Origin: a bacterium BMS3Bbin13
GTDB taxonomy: Bacteria > Pseudomonadota > Gammaproteobacteria > 21-64-14
Length of the DNA stretch: 39,385 nucleotides
Assembly: GCA_002897735.1 (NCBI GenBank)
Contig: BDTW01000040.1
Span: 1 to 39,385 of the forward strand
Direction of reading: 5' to 3'
Position numbers and translations under genes: made by a program. The notes beneath the pieces were generated by a model. It worked only from the letters and a program-made list of their open reading frames with translations, did not search any database and was not told the DNA's origin. Positions 8,515-39,385 of this stretch are shown here, one piece after another (positions within the stretch are counted from its first letter, which is position 1; the number at the start of each line of letters is the position of its first letter).

Positions 8515-9420
8515 ATGCAAACCATGGCCCCGCCATCGCCGGTCGACTTCCGAACCGGTCCCGACATCGGGTCCGGAGACCGCCTGGGACTCACCCTGTT
8601 CCTGTCGGTGACGATCCACGCATTGGTGATCCTCGGCATCGGCTTCCACGGCATCCTGTCCCAGGCGCGGGAACCCACGTCGCGGCTGGATATCATCCTG
8701 GTGCGGGGCCGATCGCCCGCGCCGCCCAGGAACCCGGACTACCTGGCCCAGGCCAATCAGGACGGCGGCGGGAACGTGGCCGAGCGGGTGCGGCCCCGCA
8801 ACCCGCCGGGCGGCACCTCGCCGTTGCCGCGCCCGGGCGCGGCCCCGGTCGATACCGCGCCCGCGCACGCCGCACCGCCCGAGCGCCACCCGCGCCGGGT
8901 ACTCACCGCCACCGACTCCCGGCACCGCGTCGACAGCGCCACGAACCGCCCGCCGCAACCCCGGAGCCCGGTCCCGAACGCCGGCGAACTCATCAGCCGC
9001 AGCCTGCGCATCGCGAGCCTCACGGCCGGGTTGGACCAATCCCTCCGGTCCTATGCGCGACGCCCCCGCCAGACCTATATCTCGGCGCGCACCCAGGCCT
9101 ACAAGTACGCCAGTTACATGCAGGCGTGGGTGGCCAAGGTCGAACGCATGGGGAATCTGAACTACCCGGACGCGGCGACACGCCGCGGACTGACCGGGAC
9201 CCTGCTCCTGGACGTGGCACTGCTCCCGGACGGCCGCGTGGAGAAGATCACCCTGCTGCGCTCCTCCGGCCACAAGGTGCTGGACGACGCGGCGATCCGG
9301 ATCGTGCGCCTGTGCGCACCCTACGCGCCCTTCCCCCCGGACATCCGCAAGGACACCGACATCCTGCACATCACCCGGACCTGGCAATTTCTGGCCGGGA
9401 ATCAATTCGCCACCCGATGA
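8515..9420 (+). CDS. tonB: TonB-family energy transducer
   Basis: TonB proteins carry energy from the inner-membrane ExbB-ExbD complex to outer-membrane receptors. This 301-aa protein has the expected build. A short cytoplasmic N-terminus is followed by one membrane anchor (about residues 25-47). A long proline- and arginine-rich periplasmic stretch (about 60-155) comes next, and then a C-terminal TonB domain (about 200-295) with YPDAATRRGLTGTLLLDVAL and LRSSGHKVLDDAAI. exbB and exbD are not adjacent. The position after gshB matches the tonB paralogue near pilGHIJ in Pseudomonas, which has been linked to twitching motility, so a role in pilus function rather than iron uptake is possible (inference). 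Confidence 0.88.
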   Translation: MQTMAPPSPVDFRTGPDIGSGDRLGLTLFLSVTIHALVILGIGFHGILSQAREPTSRLDIILVRGRSPAPPRNPDYLAQANQDGGGNVAERVRPRNPPGGTSPLPRPGAAPVDTAPAHAAPPERHPRRVLTATDSRHRVDSATNRPPQPRSPVPNAGELISRSLRIASLTAGLDQSLRSYARRPRQTYISARTQAYKYASYMQAWVAKVERMGNLNYPDAATRRGLTGTLLLDVALLPDGRVEKITLLRSSGHKVLDDAAIRIVRLCAPYAPFPPDIRKDTDILHITRTWQFLAGNQFATR

Positions 9421-9529
9421 CCCGCGACGCCGCCCCGGGGCCCTTGCGGGGTCCATACATTACCCGTGGATAGGGTCCCGCCGCACCGAGGCCCTTGCGG
9501 GGGTGCGGCCGGTGCCGGATACTAGAAAT

Positions 9530-10093
9530 ATGATTGGGGCTACGGATCTCACGAATCACTTCCTGATCGCCATGCCGCAGCTCGCGGACCCGAATTTCTC
9601 CCGGACGGTGACCTACGTCTGCGAGTACGACGGGAAAGGGGCGCTCGGAATCGTGATCAATCGGCCGCTGGAGCTGCGGCTCGGGGAAGTCCTCGCCCAC
9701 ATGGATCTGAAGGTCGACAGCGACGCGGTCGCCGCCATGCCCGTGTACCTGGGCGGTCCGGTGCAGACCGACCGGGGTTTCGTGTTGCACCGCGGGGACC
9801 GCCGCTGGGAGACGACGCTGGCCGTGACCGAGGACATCGCGGTGACCTCCTCGCGCGACATCCTCGTCGACATCGCCCGCGGCGAAGGACCGGAGCAACT
9901 GCTCGTGGCGCTCGGTTACGCGGGCTGGGGCGCCGGCCAACTGGAACAGGAGATGGCCGAGAATTCCTGGCTCAGCGGCCCGGCGGACCCGGAGATCCTG
10001 TTCGAGATCCCCGATGAGACACGCTGGGAGGCTGCCGCGGCGCGCCTCGGGGTGGATCTCGGCCTGCTGCCGGGGCAGGCCGGCCACGGATGA
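9530..10093 (+). CDS. yqgE: YqgE/AlgH family protein
   Basis: Conserved small protein of the UPF0301/AlgH family, molecular role not settled; named AlgH in Pseudomonas for an effect on alginate. 187 aa from the ATG at 9530. Typical segments: LTNHFLIAMPQLADPNFSRT at the N-terminus, GALGIVINRPLELRLGEVL, VYLGGPVQTDRGFVLH, and GYAGWGAGQLEQEMAENSWL. An in-frame GTG at 9503 would add 9 residues and sits after a G-rich stretch; I prefer the ATG, where family similarity begins. The stop overlaps the ruvX start by 4 nt. This yqgE-ruvX pair is widely conserved. Confidence 0.92.
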   Translation: MIGATDLTNHFLIAMPQLADPNFSRTVTYVCEYDGKGALGIVINRPLELRLGEVLAHMDLKVDSDAVAAMPVYLGGPVQTDRGFVLHRGDRRWETTLAVTEDIAVTSSRDILVDIARGEGPEQLLVALGYAGWGAGQLEQEMAENSWLSGPADPEILFEIPDETRWEAAAARLGVDLGLLPGQAGHG

Positions 10094-10575
10094 GCGGGAA
10101 TCCGCCTCGAACCACGCCGCGGGCGACGCCACAGCGCACCTGCCTCGGTTTCGACTACGGGCTGCGGCGCATCGGGGTCGCCGTCGGCGAGACGCTGACG
10201 GGAAGCGCCCGGCCGTTGCAGACGGTGGCGGCGCGCGACGGCGAGCCGGACTGGGACGCCCTCGGCGGGCTGATCCGTTCCTGGGAACCGGACGCCCTAG
10301 TGGTGGGGGTACCGCTGCACCTGGACGGCGCGCGACAACCCATGACCGACGCGGCGCAGCGCTTCGCACGCCGGCTCGAAGGCCGCTACCGGCTGCCCGT
10401 GCACCGGGTCGACGAGCGCCTGAGCAGCGACGAGGCGCGGCGGGTGCTCGCCGCACGCGGCGTCTCCGGGCGCGCCGCGCGCACGCGGCTCGATCCGGTG
10501 GCCGCGCAGATCATCCTCGAGACCTGGCTCAATCGACGGGTGGCCGATACCCATGACACAGACACTGAACGCTGA
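10090..10575 (+). CDS. ruvX: RuvX/YqgF, Holliday-junction-resolvase-like nuclease
   Basis: RNase H-fold protein of the YqgF family, linked to 16S rRNA 3'-end processing and proposed as an alternative Holliday junction resolvase. 161 aa. Visible motifs are LGFDYGLRRIGVAVG with the first catalytic Asp, LVVGVPLHLDG, and VDERLSSDEARRV with the second acidic site. An Asp in RLDPVAAQIILETWL completes the active site. The N-terminus carries about 17 extra residues before the core. It overlaps yqgE at its start and pyrR by 23 nt at its end, so translation is probably coupled through the whole block. Confidence 0.94.
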   Translation: MSGNPPRTTPRATPQRTCLGFDYGLRRIGVAVGETLTGSARPLQTVAARDGEPDWDALGGLIRSWEPDALVVGVPLHLDGARQPMTDAAQRFARRLEGRYRLPVHRVDERLSSDEARRVLAARGVSGRAARTRLDPVAAQIILETWLNRRVADTHDTDTER

Positions 10576-11071
10576 GGAAATCGAAGCGCTGATCGAGGCG
10601 ATGGCCGGGCGGCTGCGGGCGCTCATCACGGAACGCCGCCTCGACGAGGCCGCCATGATCGGGATCCACACCGGCGGCGTGTGGGTGGCGAGCCGGCTGC
10701 ACCGCCGGCTCGCGCTGGCCGAACCGCTGGGCGCCCTCGACATCTCCTTCTACCGGGACGACTTCACCCGCATCGGTATGAATCCCCAGGTGCGCCCGTC
10801 GCAACTGCCGTTCAACGTCGACGACCGGCACATTATTCTGGTGGACGACGTCCTGCACACCGGGCGCACCATCCGCGCGGCCCTCAACGAGATCTTCGAC
10901 TACGGGCGCCCCGCCTCGATCCTGCTGGCGGTGCTCGTGGAGCGCAGCGGCCGCGAGTTGCCCATCGAGGCGCAGGTGGTGGGCCGGCACATGGAACTCA
11001 GGCGCCGCGAGCACGCCAAACTCAGCGGACCCGAGCCTCTCAGCCTCACCGTAATCCACAAGGACCCATGA
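10553..11071 (+). CDS. pyrR: PyrR, pyrimidine operon regulator / uracil phosphoribosyltransferase family
   Basis: PyrR is a PRPP-binding protein of the type I phosphoribosyltransferase fold. In Bacillus it binds pyr mRNA and attenuates transcription; in gammaproteobacteria the role is less clear. 172 aa. The PRPP loop [17 protein letters not shown] is intact (about residues 97-113), preceded by [10 protein letters not shown] with the residues typical of PyrR. It overlaps ruvX by 23 nt, and its TGA overlaps the pyrB ATG. I see no antiterminator/terminator leader or PyrR-binding loop in front of it, because it sits inside coding sequence, so RNA control here is unproven. Confidence 0.93.
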
Positions 11072-12072
11072 GCGGCGCCAACCTCCAGGTCGACGAGAAC
11101 GGTCGGCTGCGCCATTTTCTGACCGTCGAAGGGCTGCACCGCGGACTGTTGGTCGAGATTATGGACACCGCGGAATCGTTCCTGGGCGTCGTCGAGCAGA
11201 GCGTCAAGAAGGTCCCCCTGCTGCGCGGCAAGACCATCGTCAACCTCTTCTTCGAGGCCAGCACCCGCACGCGCACGACCTTCGAGCTGGCGGCCAAGCG
11301 CCTGTCCGCCGACGTGCTGAACATCAACGTCGACGCCTCGGCCACGGTCAAGGGCGAGACGCTGCTCGACACGTTGCGCAACCTGGAGGCGATGCACTGC
11401 GACATGTTCGTGGTGCGCCACGCCGACAGCGGCACCGCGCACTTCTTCGCACGGCACGCCGCGCCCCACGTGAGCGTGATCAACGCCGGCGACGGGCGAC
11501 ACGCGCACCCCACCCAGGCGTTGCTCGACATGCTCACGATCCGCCGGCACAAGGGCGGATTCGACCGGCTGCGGGTAGTCATCGTGGGGGACATCCTGCA
11601 CTCGCGGGTGGCGCGCTCCCAGATCCGGGCCCTCAACCTCCTCGGCGCGGGCGAGGTACGGGTCGTGGCGCCGCACACGCTGCTGCCCGTGCGGGCCGAG
11701 ACCTTGGGAGTCCGCGTCTTCCATGATCTCGAGGCCGGCATCCGCGACGCCGACGTCATCATCATGCTGCGCCTGCAACACGAGCGCATGCGCGGCGCCC
11801 TGCTGCCGAGCGAGCACGAGTACTTCCGGCTGTTCGGACTGACCGCGGAGCGGCTCACGCTGGCCGCGCCCGAGGCGATCGTCATGCACCCGGGTCCGAT
11901 CAACCGCGGCGTCGAGATAGACTCGCAGGTGGCCGACGGCGCGCACTCCGTGATCCTCGAACAGGTCCACTACGGGATCGCCGTGCGCATGGCGGTGATG
12001 TCGCTCGCCATGCACCGGCGGATACCGGCCCCCGAGGCGCGCGAAGCCGGGGCCGAGCGGGAGATCGGATGA
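11068..12072 (+). CDS. pyrB: Aspartate carbamoyltransferase catalytic chain
   Basis: Catalyses carbamoyl phosphate + aspartate to carbamoyl aspartate, the committed step of pyrimidine synthesis. 334 aa from the ATG that overlaps the pyrR stop. Signature segments: [20 protein letters not shown] (carbamoyl-phosphate site), the [17 protein letters not shown] block, and [12 protein letters not shown] near the C-terminus. There is no pyrI regulatory subunit. Instead pyrB overlaps a dihydroorotase-like gene by 4 nt, the arrangement of class A transcarbamoylases such as that of Pseudomonas, where the two chains form a dodecamer (family knowledge). Confidence 0.96.
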
Positions 12073-36668: not shown

Positions 36669-36778
36669 CCGGCAACGGCTGGAGAGGCCTTTGCCGAGTC
36701 CTTTGGTGTAGGGTTGGAAAGTGTTTACCCATAAACAATTTCCGGCAACGGCTGGGGAGCGTTTTGCCGAGTCCTTTG
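36669..36778. repeat. 73-bp-period direct repeat in the hsdR leader
   Basis: A 37-nt sequence starting CCGGCAACGGCTGG and ending GCCGAGTCCTTTG occurs at 36669-36705 and 36742-36778 with four mismatches. Extra partial copies of TCCTTTGCT follow at about 36784 and 36895. An open frame of 91 codons (36634-36909) runs through these repeats but shows no family resemblance, and I do not accept it as a gene. Confidence 0.65.
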
Positions 36779-36785
36779 CTGGATC

Positions 36786-36824
36786 CTTTGCTAGACCAGC
36801 GAACCACAGCAGGGTCTAGCAAAG
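36786..36824 (-). terminator. Perfect 12-bp stem-loop after the AlbA_2 gene
   Basis: CTTTGCTAGACC (36786-36797) and GGTCTAGCAAAG (36813-36824) form a perfect 12-bp stem with a 15-nt loop, about 80 nt downstream of the AlbA_2 gene stop. There is no U-run, so a simple intrinsic terminator is not certain; it could instead be a protein-binding operator for hsdR or an mRNA processing site. Confidence 0.45.
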
Positions 36825-36905
36825 CGCTATGTAGCTGTTCTAAAAAGGTTTGCGCCGGCGAAGACGCGCTACGAGCCCCGTTCTGGGCCTGACTCCTTTG
36901 CTCGG

Positions 36906-38591
36906 TCATGGCAAGTCCTCGTCCGGATTACGCTCGACAGTCACCCACTGGGGCTTCGACCGACTGCCGCGGTTGTCGATCTCTCCGGCTCGACGCAGCT
37001 CCTGAAGGAGGTTGTGGACCTTGCGGCGCTTCTGCTCCTGCGTGAGGCGATCCGGCAGCTTGGGCACGAGGAGCTGATCCACGTCCCTCCGATCCACCGG
37101 CTGGTGTTCGCGCACCAGGGCCAGAATAAGATCGTGGTAGTACTGCTTGTCGAAGCCCCGCTCGCGAATATGCCGGCCCGCTTCGCCGGCCGCCTTCGCG
37201 ACCGCACCGGCCACGATGAGGTTGGGATAGCGGCCCTCGACCAGACCGGCGGACTTCAGGCGGCGGTGCTCGTCCCGGTCGATCCGCTGCCCCTTCTGCA
37301 CCCGGTCGAGAAGCATGACTTGCCTAAGGTCGAGGTCGGTCCGCTCCATCAGGAGCCGCGTGTAGCGCTCGTCCAGGATCCGACCGCTGAGACTCACTGC
37401 CACCTGGCCCGGATCGTTCAGGTCGTAATCCGGCAGTGGGAACGAGCGCCGCCGCTGCGTCTCGAACATGCGCTTGATCCCACCGCCCTGGGTGTCGATC
37501 AGGTTCAGTTCGACCATCGCGTCGGCCAGGAACGGATTGCGGTAGAGGGCCTGCGGCGCGTCCTGTTGGATCACCGTCTCGACGTCGCCCGGCAGGAAGT
37601 CGCCGACGTTGGTCACCAGCAACCGGTCCGGAAACTCGATCACGATGATGCGACCGCTCCGGCGATAGTCCTGGTGTGCAATCGCGTTGTGCAACGCCTC
37701 GCGGATCACCCACGGGTCATACTGGGTGATCTCCAAGGGGAACAGCGTCCCGCTCGGCAGCGCGCGCACGACGAGGTTGCGAATATGCTTGAGCAGGCGG
37801 TCACCGGCGAGCAGAAACGGCGGTCCAATGTGCTCATAGTCGAGTTCGCGATTATCCGCGTCTTTGAGTATCCACGAGATCTTGGCCACCGCCGGCGTAA
37901 GGAGGGTCGCCGATTCGGCGCGTCCGAGCAGCAGAAGCGCCGCGTTCGTGACGGTACCCTGCCTCAGCACGCGTGCCTTGTTGAGAAAGGTCGAGTCGTC
38001 CCAGCCGGCCACCTCGGATCCCTGGCCCGGATGCTTGACGACGAACTGCTTGCGGGCCGTGGCCACGGCGTCCGGGTCGAGGTCTGCCAGCGACGCCACT
38101 TCGCATATCTCCGCCGACCAGTCGCGGCCCCGGGTCCAGAGCGCTCGCGCCTTCTCGGGATGGTTTCTCAGCTCGGTCTTGCTGGCGCCGACGCGTATGT
38201 GCGCTGCGCCGTAGAAGGCTACCGGCTCACCTTGCGCGGGGCCGACCCCGAACAGGACGACTCGACCATCCGGATGCTCGACGACCTGCACGTCGAACCC
38301 GGTGTTCGGGCGCAGCCCTACCGTGAGCCACGGCAACAGGTCTTGATTGCCCTTGCCCTTCTCCGCGTACGGATCGAAGTGTGTGCCGACAACAGCGTGC
38401 GTCGCGTCGTCGATGCCGAATACGAGGTAACCACGAGGCTGATTTGCGAGGCAGGCGGCATTTGCGAGCGCAGACAGGTATTCGCCGAGCAGTTGGGGCT
38501 GGTAGTAGTTGCGTTTGAACTCGAGCCACTCCGTCTCCGCCGGCAGGGCACGCAGGCGGTCGATGAGCACGATGTGCTCGCGCCGGCTCAC
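36906..38591 (-). CDS. Schlafen/AlbA_2-domain ATP-binding regulator inside the type I RM operon
   Basis: 561 aa. The N-terminal AlbA_2 (Schlafen-like) domain shows the ExxExK motif, Glu21-Glu24-Lys26 in AETEWLEFKRNYY, and GYLVFGIDD around residue 54. The middle carries a GHKL-type ATP-binding fold: N-box REALHNAIAHQDY at 297-309, NVGDFLPG at 328-335 and TQGGGIKRMF at 367-376. The C-terminus (about 480-555) looks like a winged helix. Such proteins are annotated as putative transcriptional regulators and often sit in restriction operons; whether they act on RNA, DNA or the restriction complex is open. It starts with GTG overlapping the hsdS stop by 4 nt, so it is translationally coupled to hsdS. 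Confidence 0.85.
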   Translation of the reverse strand: MSRREHIVLIDRLRALPAETEWLEFKRNYYQPQLLGEYLSALANAACLANQPRGYLVFGIDDATHAVVGTHFDPYAEKGKGNQDLLPWLTVGLRPNTGFDVQVVEHPDGRVVLFGVGPAQGEPVAFYGAAHIRVGASKTELRNHPEKARALWTRGRDWSAEICEVASLADLDPDAVATARKQFVVKHPGQGSEVAGWDDSTFLNKARVLRQGTVTNAALLLLGRAESATLLTPAVAKISWILKDADNRELDYEHIGPPFLLAGDRLLKHIRNLVVRALPSGTLFPLEITQYDPWVIREALHNAIAHQDYRRSGRIIVIEFPDRLLVTNVGDFLPGDVETVIQQDAPQALYRNPFLADAMVELNLIDTQGGGIKRMFETQRRRSFPLPDYDLNDPGQVAVSLSGRILDERYTRLLMERTDLDLRQVMLLDRVQKGQRIDRDEHRRLKSAGLVEGRYPNLIVAGAVAKAAGEAGRHIRERGFDKQYYHDLILALVREHQPVDRRDVDQLLVPKLPDRLTQEQKRRKVHNLLQELRRAGEIDNRGSRSKPQWVTVERNPDEDLP

Positions 38592-39385
38592 GCCTCGGCC
38601 TCCTCGGATACCGCATCAAGGTCGGCGGATGTGGCATCCTCAGCGTCGATAAGGGCATCGTCATCTTCAAGCGACTCTGGCTCGTCATCCTCATCCGGCA
38701 AGCGTGCTGCCACCTCGCGCACGTCGAGCTTGCCGGTGACCACGTCAGCGATCAGGCGGGTGCGGTACTCGCGGAGGAGGGAGATTTCAGACTGAACACG
38801 AGCACGAACTGGCGCGATCGACCGAATGAATTCATCCAATTCGCGCTGCTCCTTGAATGGAGGAACAGGTACTCGCTCCTTGAGCAGTGTGCGAATATTT
38901 AGCGGTCGATTGCGCCCTGCTGCGCCGCGAGAGTGCTGATCAAGAAGCATTGCGCCGAAATCAAATCGCAACAAAGCGAAGAGATAAGGTGTTGTTGACC
39001 GACCTTCGACACCCCGCAACAGGTGGTAACGATGGCTAACGACCGTGTTCTCCTCGGAGTGGGTGGCTAACGTGACGGCCCCTTCCCAAGCGAAGCGAAT
39101 TGACCACTAATCACCAGGTCTCCGAGCTTGACCCAGAAGAACGTGGAATCGCCTAACTCAGAACCGGACCTTGGGGCCTTGTGAAAAAGGCCGCGACCAC
39201 GATTGTAGAGGCCCAATGGAGTGTAGTCATTCGTGTCATTTCTCGTAACTGAGCGAAGGGGCTGAGTCGTAATTCTTTCTAGTCTCTCCGACTGGCGCTC
39301 TGTGTGACGCATCGCTTCTGCGGCTTTCACAGTAACCTGCTCCTCCAGCAGCTTGATCAGCGTCTGCTTGGCGCGAATGTAGCGC
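38588..39385 (-). pseudogene. hsdS: HsdS specificity subunit, C-terminal part, frameshifted (5' end beyond window)
   Basis: The specificity subunit chooses the target of the type I enzyme. The visible part begins with the central conserved helix (RYIRAKQTLIKLLEEQ). It continues through the second target-recognition domain (FFWVKLGDLVISGQFA) and ends with the distal helix (EQRELDEFIRSIAPVRARVQ) and an acidic tail. The frame breaks at 39088-39097, where a 5-nt unit is doubled. The upstream frame then stops at 39067-39069, while the correct reading continues as WEGAVTLATHSEENTVVSHR in another frame. Removing one 5-nt copy restores the protein. As written, the product lacks the end of its second recognition domain and the distal helix. 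A sequencing or assembly error is possible. Confidence 0.85.
39088..39097. repeat. 5-bp tandem duplication that shifts the hsdS frame
   Basis: AAGCG occurs twice in direct succession on the plus strand (TTCGC on the coding strand, within CAATTCGCTTCGCTTGGG). The unit is not a multiple of three. With one copy the coding strand reads Q-F-A-W-E-G-A, which is what HsdS proteins have at this place; with two copies it reads Q-F-A-S-L-G and stops soon after. Confidence 0.85.

What the first reader, a model, noticed from the sequence alone, without database searches (positions are those of the whole stretch)
39088..39097. A 5-bp tandem duplication breaks hsdS inside its second recognition domain
The sequence shows AAGCG twice in a row exactly where the HsdS reading changes frame; dropping one copy gives a continuous HsdS. 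It is either a recent loss of specificity (the R and M subunits left without a target), a slippage-type on/off switch of the restriction system, or a base-calling error. A reversible switch would be the most interesting case, because hsdR and the AlbA_2 gene are still intact and the AlbA_2 start is coupled to the hsdS stop.
Basis: seen in the sequence. Interest (0 to 1): 0.6.

Follow-up and report, generated by a model that had tools for sequence, protein, structure and literature searches.

The report
Frameshifted type I restriction specificity gene
A five-base stutter has knocked the target-recognition gene of a bacterial DNA-restriction system out of frame; it looks like an ordinary, fairly recent gene-breaking mutation, and nothing available here shows that it works as an on/off switch.

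Summary
AAGCG occurs twice at 39088-39097 (2.4 copies to 39099). On the minus strand hsdS changes frame exactly there, inside the SGQFAWEGAV motif that three annotated plasmid HsdS homologues read without a break. Their DNA has no second copy, so the two-copy state is derived. The reading stops at 39069-39067, truncating the protein in the middle of the second recognition domain. Everything downstream is still open, AlbA_2 and hsdR are full length, and other conserved genes checked in the window are intact, so the break is probably real and recent.

The switch reading is not supported. The window holds 50 perfect 5-bp tandem pairs, so two copies is ordinary. The homologous site has no repeat tract, no relative shows this break, and published pentanucleotide switches of methyltransferase genes have 14-27 copies.

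The window is a whole contig that ends inside hsdS, 286 bp beyond the duplication. The matching hsdM is not in the assembly, so "R and M left without a target" cannot be tested. Most likely: a single duplication inactivated, or at least truncated, HsdS. The best alternative function is a NgoAV-like half-HsdS with altered, symmetric specificity.

The parts
39088..39099 (+). AAGCG tandem duplication, 2.4 copies (AAGCGAAGCGAA); on the coding strand TTCGCTTCGCTT
   Evidence: exactly 5 extra bases relative to the S. baltica plasmid homologue
39067..39384 (-). hsdS upstream fragment: first dimerisation helix (D1) end plus the N-terminal part of recognition domain 2, then off-frame residues and a stop at 39069-39067; runs off the contig end
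38588..39094 (-). hsdS downstream fragment, open to its stop: rest of recognition domain 2 and the C-terminal helix
39333..39385 (-). D1 block (RYIRAKQTLIKLLEEQ), 85-89% identical DNA across distant loci; the contig ends inside it
38588..38591 (-). GTGA overlap: hsdS stop and AlbA_2 start; arrangement conserved in relatives
36906..38591 (-). AlbA_2 (Schlafen AlbA_2) plus HATPase_c_4 protein, 561 aa, full length
   Evidence: PF04326, PF13749; 85% identity over 559 residues to L004
33487..36540 (-). hsdR, 1017 aa, full length
   Evidence: HSDR_N, SWI2_SNF2, T1R_D3-like; 86% identity over residues 10-1008

Best explanation
It is an ordinary frameshift mutation. A single replication-slippage event duplicated CGCTT (coding strand) between two TT dinucleotides in an intact hsdS gene. 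Translation then ends a few codons on, in the middle of the second recognition domain, so no full-length HsdS is made. The type I enzyme of this locus most likely lost its normal specificity, and with it both methylation and restriction. Because AlbA_2 begins inside the hsdS stop codon, early termination about 480 nt upstream probably also lowers AlbA_2 translation. Shown: the duplication, the frame change, the derived state, open downstream frames, and conserved overlap. Inferred: slippage as the cause, recency, loss of function, and the effect on AlbA_2.
For: Exact 5-base excess at the frame change relative to homologous DNA. The protein motif across the break is unbroken in three plasmid homologues. 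The downstream part is open for about 168 codons with no second lesion. AlbA_2 and hsdR are intact. Ten other window genes were submitted to NCBIfam; nine match named families over essentially full length and one (a GldG-like ABC-transporter protein) matches only in its N-terminal part, so the sequence is not generally error-ridden. In 24 of 27 informative relatives an open frame of at least 379 codons ends at or near the AlbA_2 start, so disruption is not recurrent. A second, clearly decayed hsdS-tail/AlbA_2 copy lies elsewhere in the same genome, showing that this lineage does lose such loci.
Against: No reads were available, so an assembly or sequencing error is not excluded, and the site is 286 bp from a contig end. 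The first half of hsdS and its hsdM are missing. A truncated HsdS can remain active in other systems (PMC3874165, PMC9577141).
Confidence: 0.72

Rival explanations
1. Sequencing or assembly artefact: the real molecules have one copy and hsdS is intact.
For: The site is 286 bp from the end of a contig, and the contig breaks in a DNA block shared by many hsdS genes, where mixed alleles are expected. The genome is a 62-contig draft.
Against: A 10-12 bp tandem repeat is far shorter than reads or usual k-mers, and a 5-bp duplication is not a typical base-calling error (general knowledge, not tested here). None of the ten other genes tested is broken by its family match.
Confidence: 0.13
2. Truncated but active HsdS: the product (TRD1, D1 helix and a partial TRD2) dimerises and gives the enzyme a new symmetric bipartite target, as in NgoAV and the EcoDXXI Tn5 mutant.
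For: Published precedent: in NgoAV a frameshift at a poly-G tract leaves an active 208-residue HsdS with palindromic specificity (PMC9577141); Tn5 insertion in the C-terminal TRD of EcoDXXI HsdS did the same (PMC3874165). The truncation here likewise keeps everything before mid-TRD2.
Against: TRD1 and HsdM are off the contig, so the product cannot be described. About 80 residues of partial TRD2 plus off-frame residues remain attached. The review states that no such homodimers had been reported outside type IC (PMC3874165), and this locus was not assigned to type IC.
Confidence: 0.09
3. Reversible slippage switch (phase variation) of the restriction system, possibly switching AlbA_2 by translational coupling as well.
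For: A tandem duplication can be lost again. The hsdS-AlbA_2 overlap is conserved. hsdS genes with repeat tracts are a known class of switch (PMC7394358).
Against: Only 2.4 copies, against 14-27 in published pentanucleotide methyltransferase switches (PMC4996451). Fifty such pairs occur in this window alone. Homologous DNA has no tract. No relative shows the break.
Confidence: 0.06

Closest known systems
hsdS frameshift pseudogenes in type I restriction-modification loci
   Same: Single small indel, rest of the operon intact, specificity subunit lost first.
   Different: Nothing in kind; here the contig end hides the hsdM side.
NgoAV (Neisseria gonorrhoeae), phase-variable hsdS1/hsdS2 (PMC9577141)
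   Same: Frame change inside hsdS leaving an N-terminal HsdS product and an out-of-frame second part.
   Different: NgoAV varies at a poly-G tract near the end of the first half; here it is a 2.4-copy pentamer inside TRD2, with no evidence of variation or activity.
EcoR124I / EcoR124II (12-bp repeat in hsdS; PMC3874165)
   Same: Short tandem repeat copy number in hsdS alters the protein.
   Different: There the repeat is in frame, in the D1 helix, and changes spacing; here it is out of frame and in TRD2.
Pentanucleotide on/off switches of methyltransferase genes (e.g. Bibersteinia trehalosi, PMC4996451)
   Same: Five-base unit; copy number decides the frame.
   Different: 14-27 copies there; 2.4 here.

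Membership tests
Type I restriction-modification locus (hsdS) | HsdS with recognition domain followed by conserved helices, next to hsdM and hsdR | tested here: inconclusive
   HsdS homology in two frames and hsdR present; the first half of hsdS and the cognate hsdM are off the contig and not in the assembly. The gene order in relatives is complete.
Simple-sequence-repeat contingency locus | Multi-copy repeat tract at the site | tested here: not met
   2.4 copies; 50 comparable pairs in the window; no tract in homologues
Simple-sequence-repeat contingency locus | Copy-number variation within a clone or between relatives | not testable with these tools
   No reads and no sister strain with the same recognition domain
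NgoAV-like truncated active HsdS | Complete first recognition domain and D1 helix upstream of the break | tested here: inconclusive
   End of D1 present; the first domain lies beyond the contig end
NgoAV-like truncated active HsdS | Methylation of a symmetric bipartite target | not testable with these tools
   Needs long-read methylation data
Inverting (recombining) hsdS locus | Second hsdS copy with inverted repeats nearby | tested here: inconclusive
   The last 126 bp of the contig have no second copy in the assembly, but the sequence on the far side is missing

The most novel reading that the evidence does not exclude
The duplication is a low-frequency reversible switch that changes HsdS from a full-length to a truncated, homodimerising form and at the same time changes AlbA_2 output through translational coupling.
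Probability: 0.04. Interest if true: 0.6.

Novelty: new member of a known kind. Interest (0 to 1): 0.15.

Why it matters
If it is an ordinary break, it matters little: it shows one more type I system losing its specificity subunit first, while the costly R subunit stays open. If reads showed both states, it would be a new place for a specificity switch and the first sign that an AlbA_2 gene is co-switched by translational coupling. The conserved hsdS/AlbA_2 overlap is the more durable observation, because it predicts that AlbA_2 is made in step with HsdS.

Tried and rejected
Linking the contig to C62 or C42: their HsdM proteins resemble the L031-type HsdM at only 34% over about 300 residues, so neither was accepted as the partner; the GmrSD_N (DUF262) accessory gene of L031 is also absent from the assembly.
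Programmed -1 frameshifting back into frame: read by eye from the codons around the break; no standard slippery heptamer seen, so not pursued.
Restart downstream: several TTG/GTG/ATG codons exist, but none has a convincing ribosome-binding site by eye; a restarted fragment would lack half of TRD2 in any case.
Relatives with the same recognition domain: best is a Shewanella baltica plasmid at 54%; none in viral contigs; one weak phage hit; nothing close enough to compare copy number.
Mapping the break on a solved structure: no PDB match.
Two papers with thresholds or primary data on repeat-driven hsdS switching were not held.

Full report
Observation. AAGCGAAGCG lies at 39088-39097 and nowhere else in the window; the perfect run is AAGCGAAGCGAA, 39088-39099. 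On the minus strand, the reading that enters from the contig end runs ...FFWVKLGDLVISGQFASLGKGPSR and stops at 39069-39067. A second frame continues FAWEGAVTLATH... to the stop at 38590-38588. HsdS proteins from plasmids of Shewanella baltica, Acinetobacter baumannii and Paracoccus pantotrophus align to the window in exactly these two frames, and each reads SGQFAWEGAV without a break where the window changes frame.

The two-copy state is derived. The S. baltica DNA is CAATTCGCATGGGAAGG; the window is CAATTCGCTTCGCTTGGGAAGG, five bases longer. A. baumannii and P. pantotrophus likewise have no second copy. The inferred earlier form has a TT on each side of CGC, enough microhomology for a slippage duplication (inference).

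Is the repeat itself unusual? No. There are 50 perfect primitive 5-bp tandem pairs in the window, covering about 1.3% of it; another, AAATCAAATC at 38958-38967, lies in the same gene without breaking it. What deserves attention is only the coincidence with the frame change.

State of the rest. The downstream part of hsdS is open for about 168 codons. AlbA_2 (Schlafen AlbA_2 and HATPase_c_4 domains) and hsdR are full length. Of ten other window genes sent to NCBIfam, nine match named families over essentially their whole length; the tenth, GldG-like, matches only in its N-terminal part. So the window is not generally broken by errors.

What the window cannot show. It is a complete contig, G000:C40, of a 2.69-Mb, 62-contig genome, and it ends at 39385 inside hsdS. 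The L031-type hsdM expected beyond the end is not in the assembly; the two HsdM genes that are there, on C42 and C62, share only 34% over about 300 residues with it. So the claim that M is left without a target is untested. The contig ends in the D1 helix block, which at DNA level is 85-89% identical over 53 nt in distant loci while recognition-domain DNA is about 55%. Such a shared block is a natural place for an assembly to branch and for recognition domains to be exchanged. In line with exchange, third-position GC is 0.54-0.57 in TRD2, against 0.94 in the short D1 stretch (16 codons), 0.83 in AlbA_2 and 0.89 in hsdR.

Relatives. Of 30 loci with both AlbA_2 and hsdR, 27 keep sequence upstream of AlbA_2; in 24 of these an open frame of at least 379 codons ends at or near the AlbA_2 start, and in 19 the stop overlaps the start by 4 nt. 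The three others (L015, L016, L019) have a short frame there for reasons not examined in full; in L016 an hsdS match lies further upstream. Open-frame length is not proof of function, but there is no sign of recurrent frameshifts at this position. In the window's own genome C57 holds a second hsdS tail and AlbA_2, the latter with an internal gap of about 350 bp relative to the window copy and frame changes, beside a transposase-like stretch.

Interpretation. The simplest account is one slippage duplication that truncated HsdS, probably recently. A type I enzyme without its specificity subunit neither methylates nor cuts at its target (established knowledge). The GTGA overlap suggests AlbA_2 translation is coupled to hsdS, so AlbA_2 output may fall as well; this is inference.

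Could it be a switch? About 7.9% of hsdS genes carry repeats thought able to vary (PMC7394358), and NgoAV varies at a poly-G tract between two active forms (PMC9577141). But the published pentanucleotide cases have 14-27 copies (PMC4996451), and here there are 2.4, with no tract in homologues. A reversible switch is therefore unlikely, though a tandem duplication can always revert at some low rate.

Could the truncated protein still work? In NgoAV and in a Tn5-truncated EcoDXXI the N-terminal half of HsdS dimerises and reads a palindrome (PMC3874165; PMC9577141), and an engineered half-HsdS did so in another system (PMC6158711). The break here leaves a comparable N-terminal product plus part of TRD2. 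This cannot be judged without the missing half of the gene and methylation data.

Verdict. Observation confirmed; interpretation partly supported; ordinary mutation most likely; interest low.

Noticed in passing
window 39333-39385: The contig ends inside the hsdS D1 block, whose DNA is 85-89% identical across loci labelled as several phyla, while recognition-domain DNA is about 55%.
   Followed up: yes
window 38873-39336: Recognition domain 2 has third-position GC of 0.54-0.57 against 0.83-0.94 in D1, AlbA_2 and hsdR, as if imported by domain exchange.
   Followed up: partly
L085 (G000:C57) about 560-1920: Decayed second copy of an hsdS tail and AlbA_2 with an internal deletion and frame changes, next to a transposase-like stretch.
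   Followed up: partly
L099 (G000:C62) 516-640: A 30-bp unit repeated 4.2 times inside an hsdM reading frame (QPVGAGLVPA repeats in the protein).
   Followed up: no
window 36669-36907: Between AlbA_2 and hsdR: five 17-nt direct repeats containing CCTTTG, a 40-nt repeated pair and a 12-nt perfect inverted repeat.
   Followed up: no
L031 5626-8559; L004 3108-7093; L006 2402-6845: In relatives the stretch between hsdM and hsdS carries variable accessory genes, including a GmrSD_N (DUF262) protein.
   Followed up: partly
L127 (G029:C113) 8851-11925: An hsdR relative whose match falls into at least seven pieces in several frames, suggesting decay or a poor assembly.
   Followed up: no
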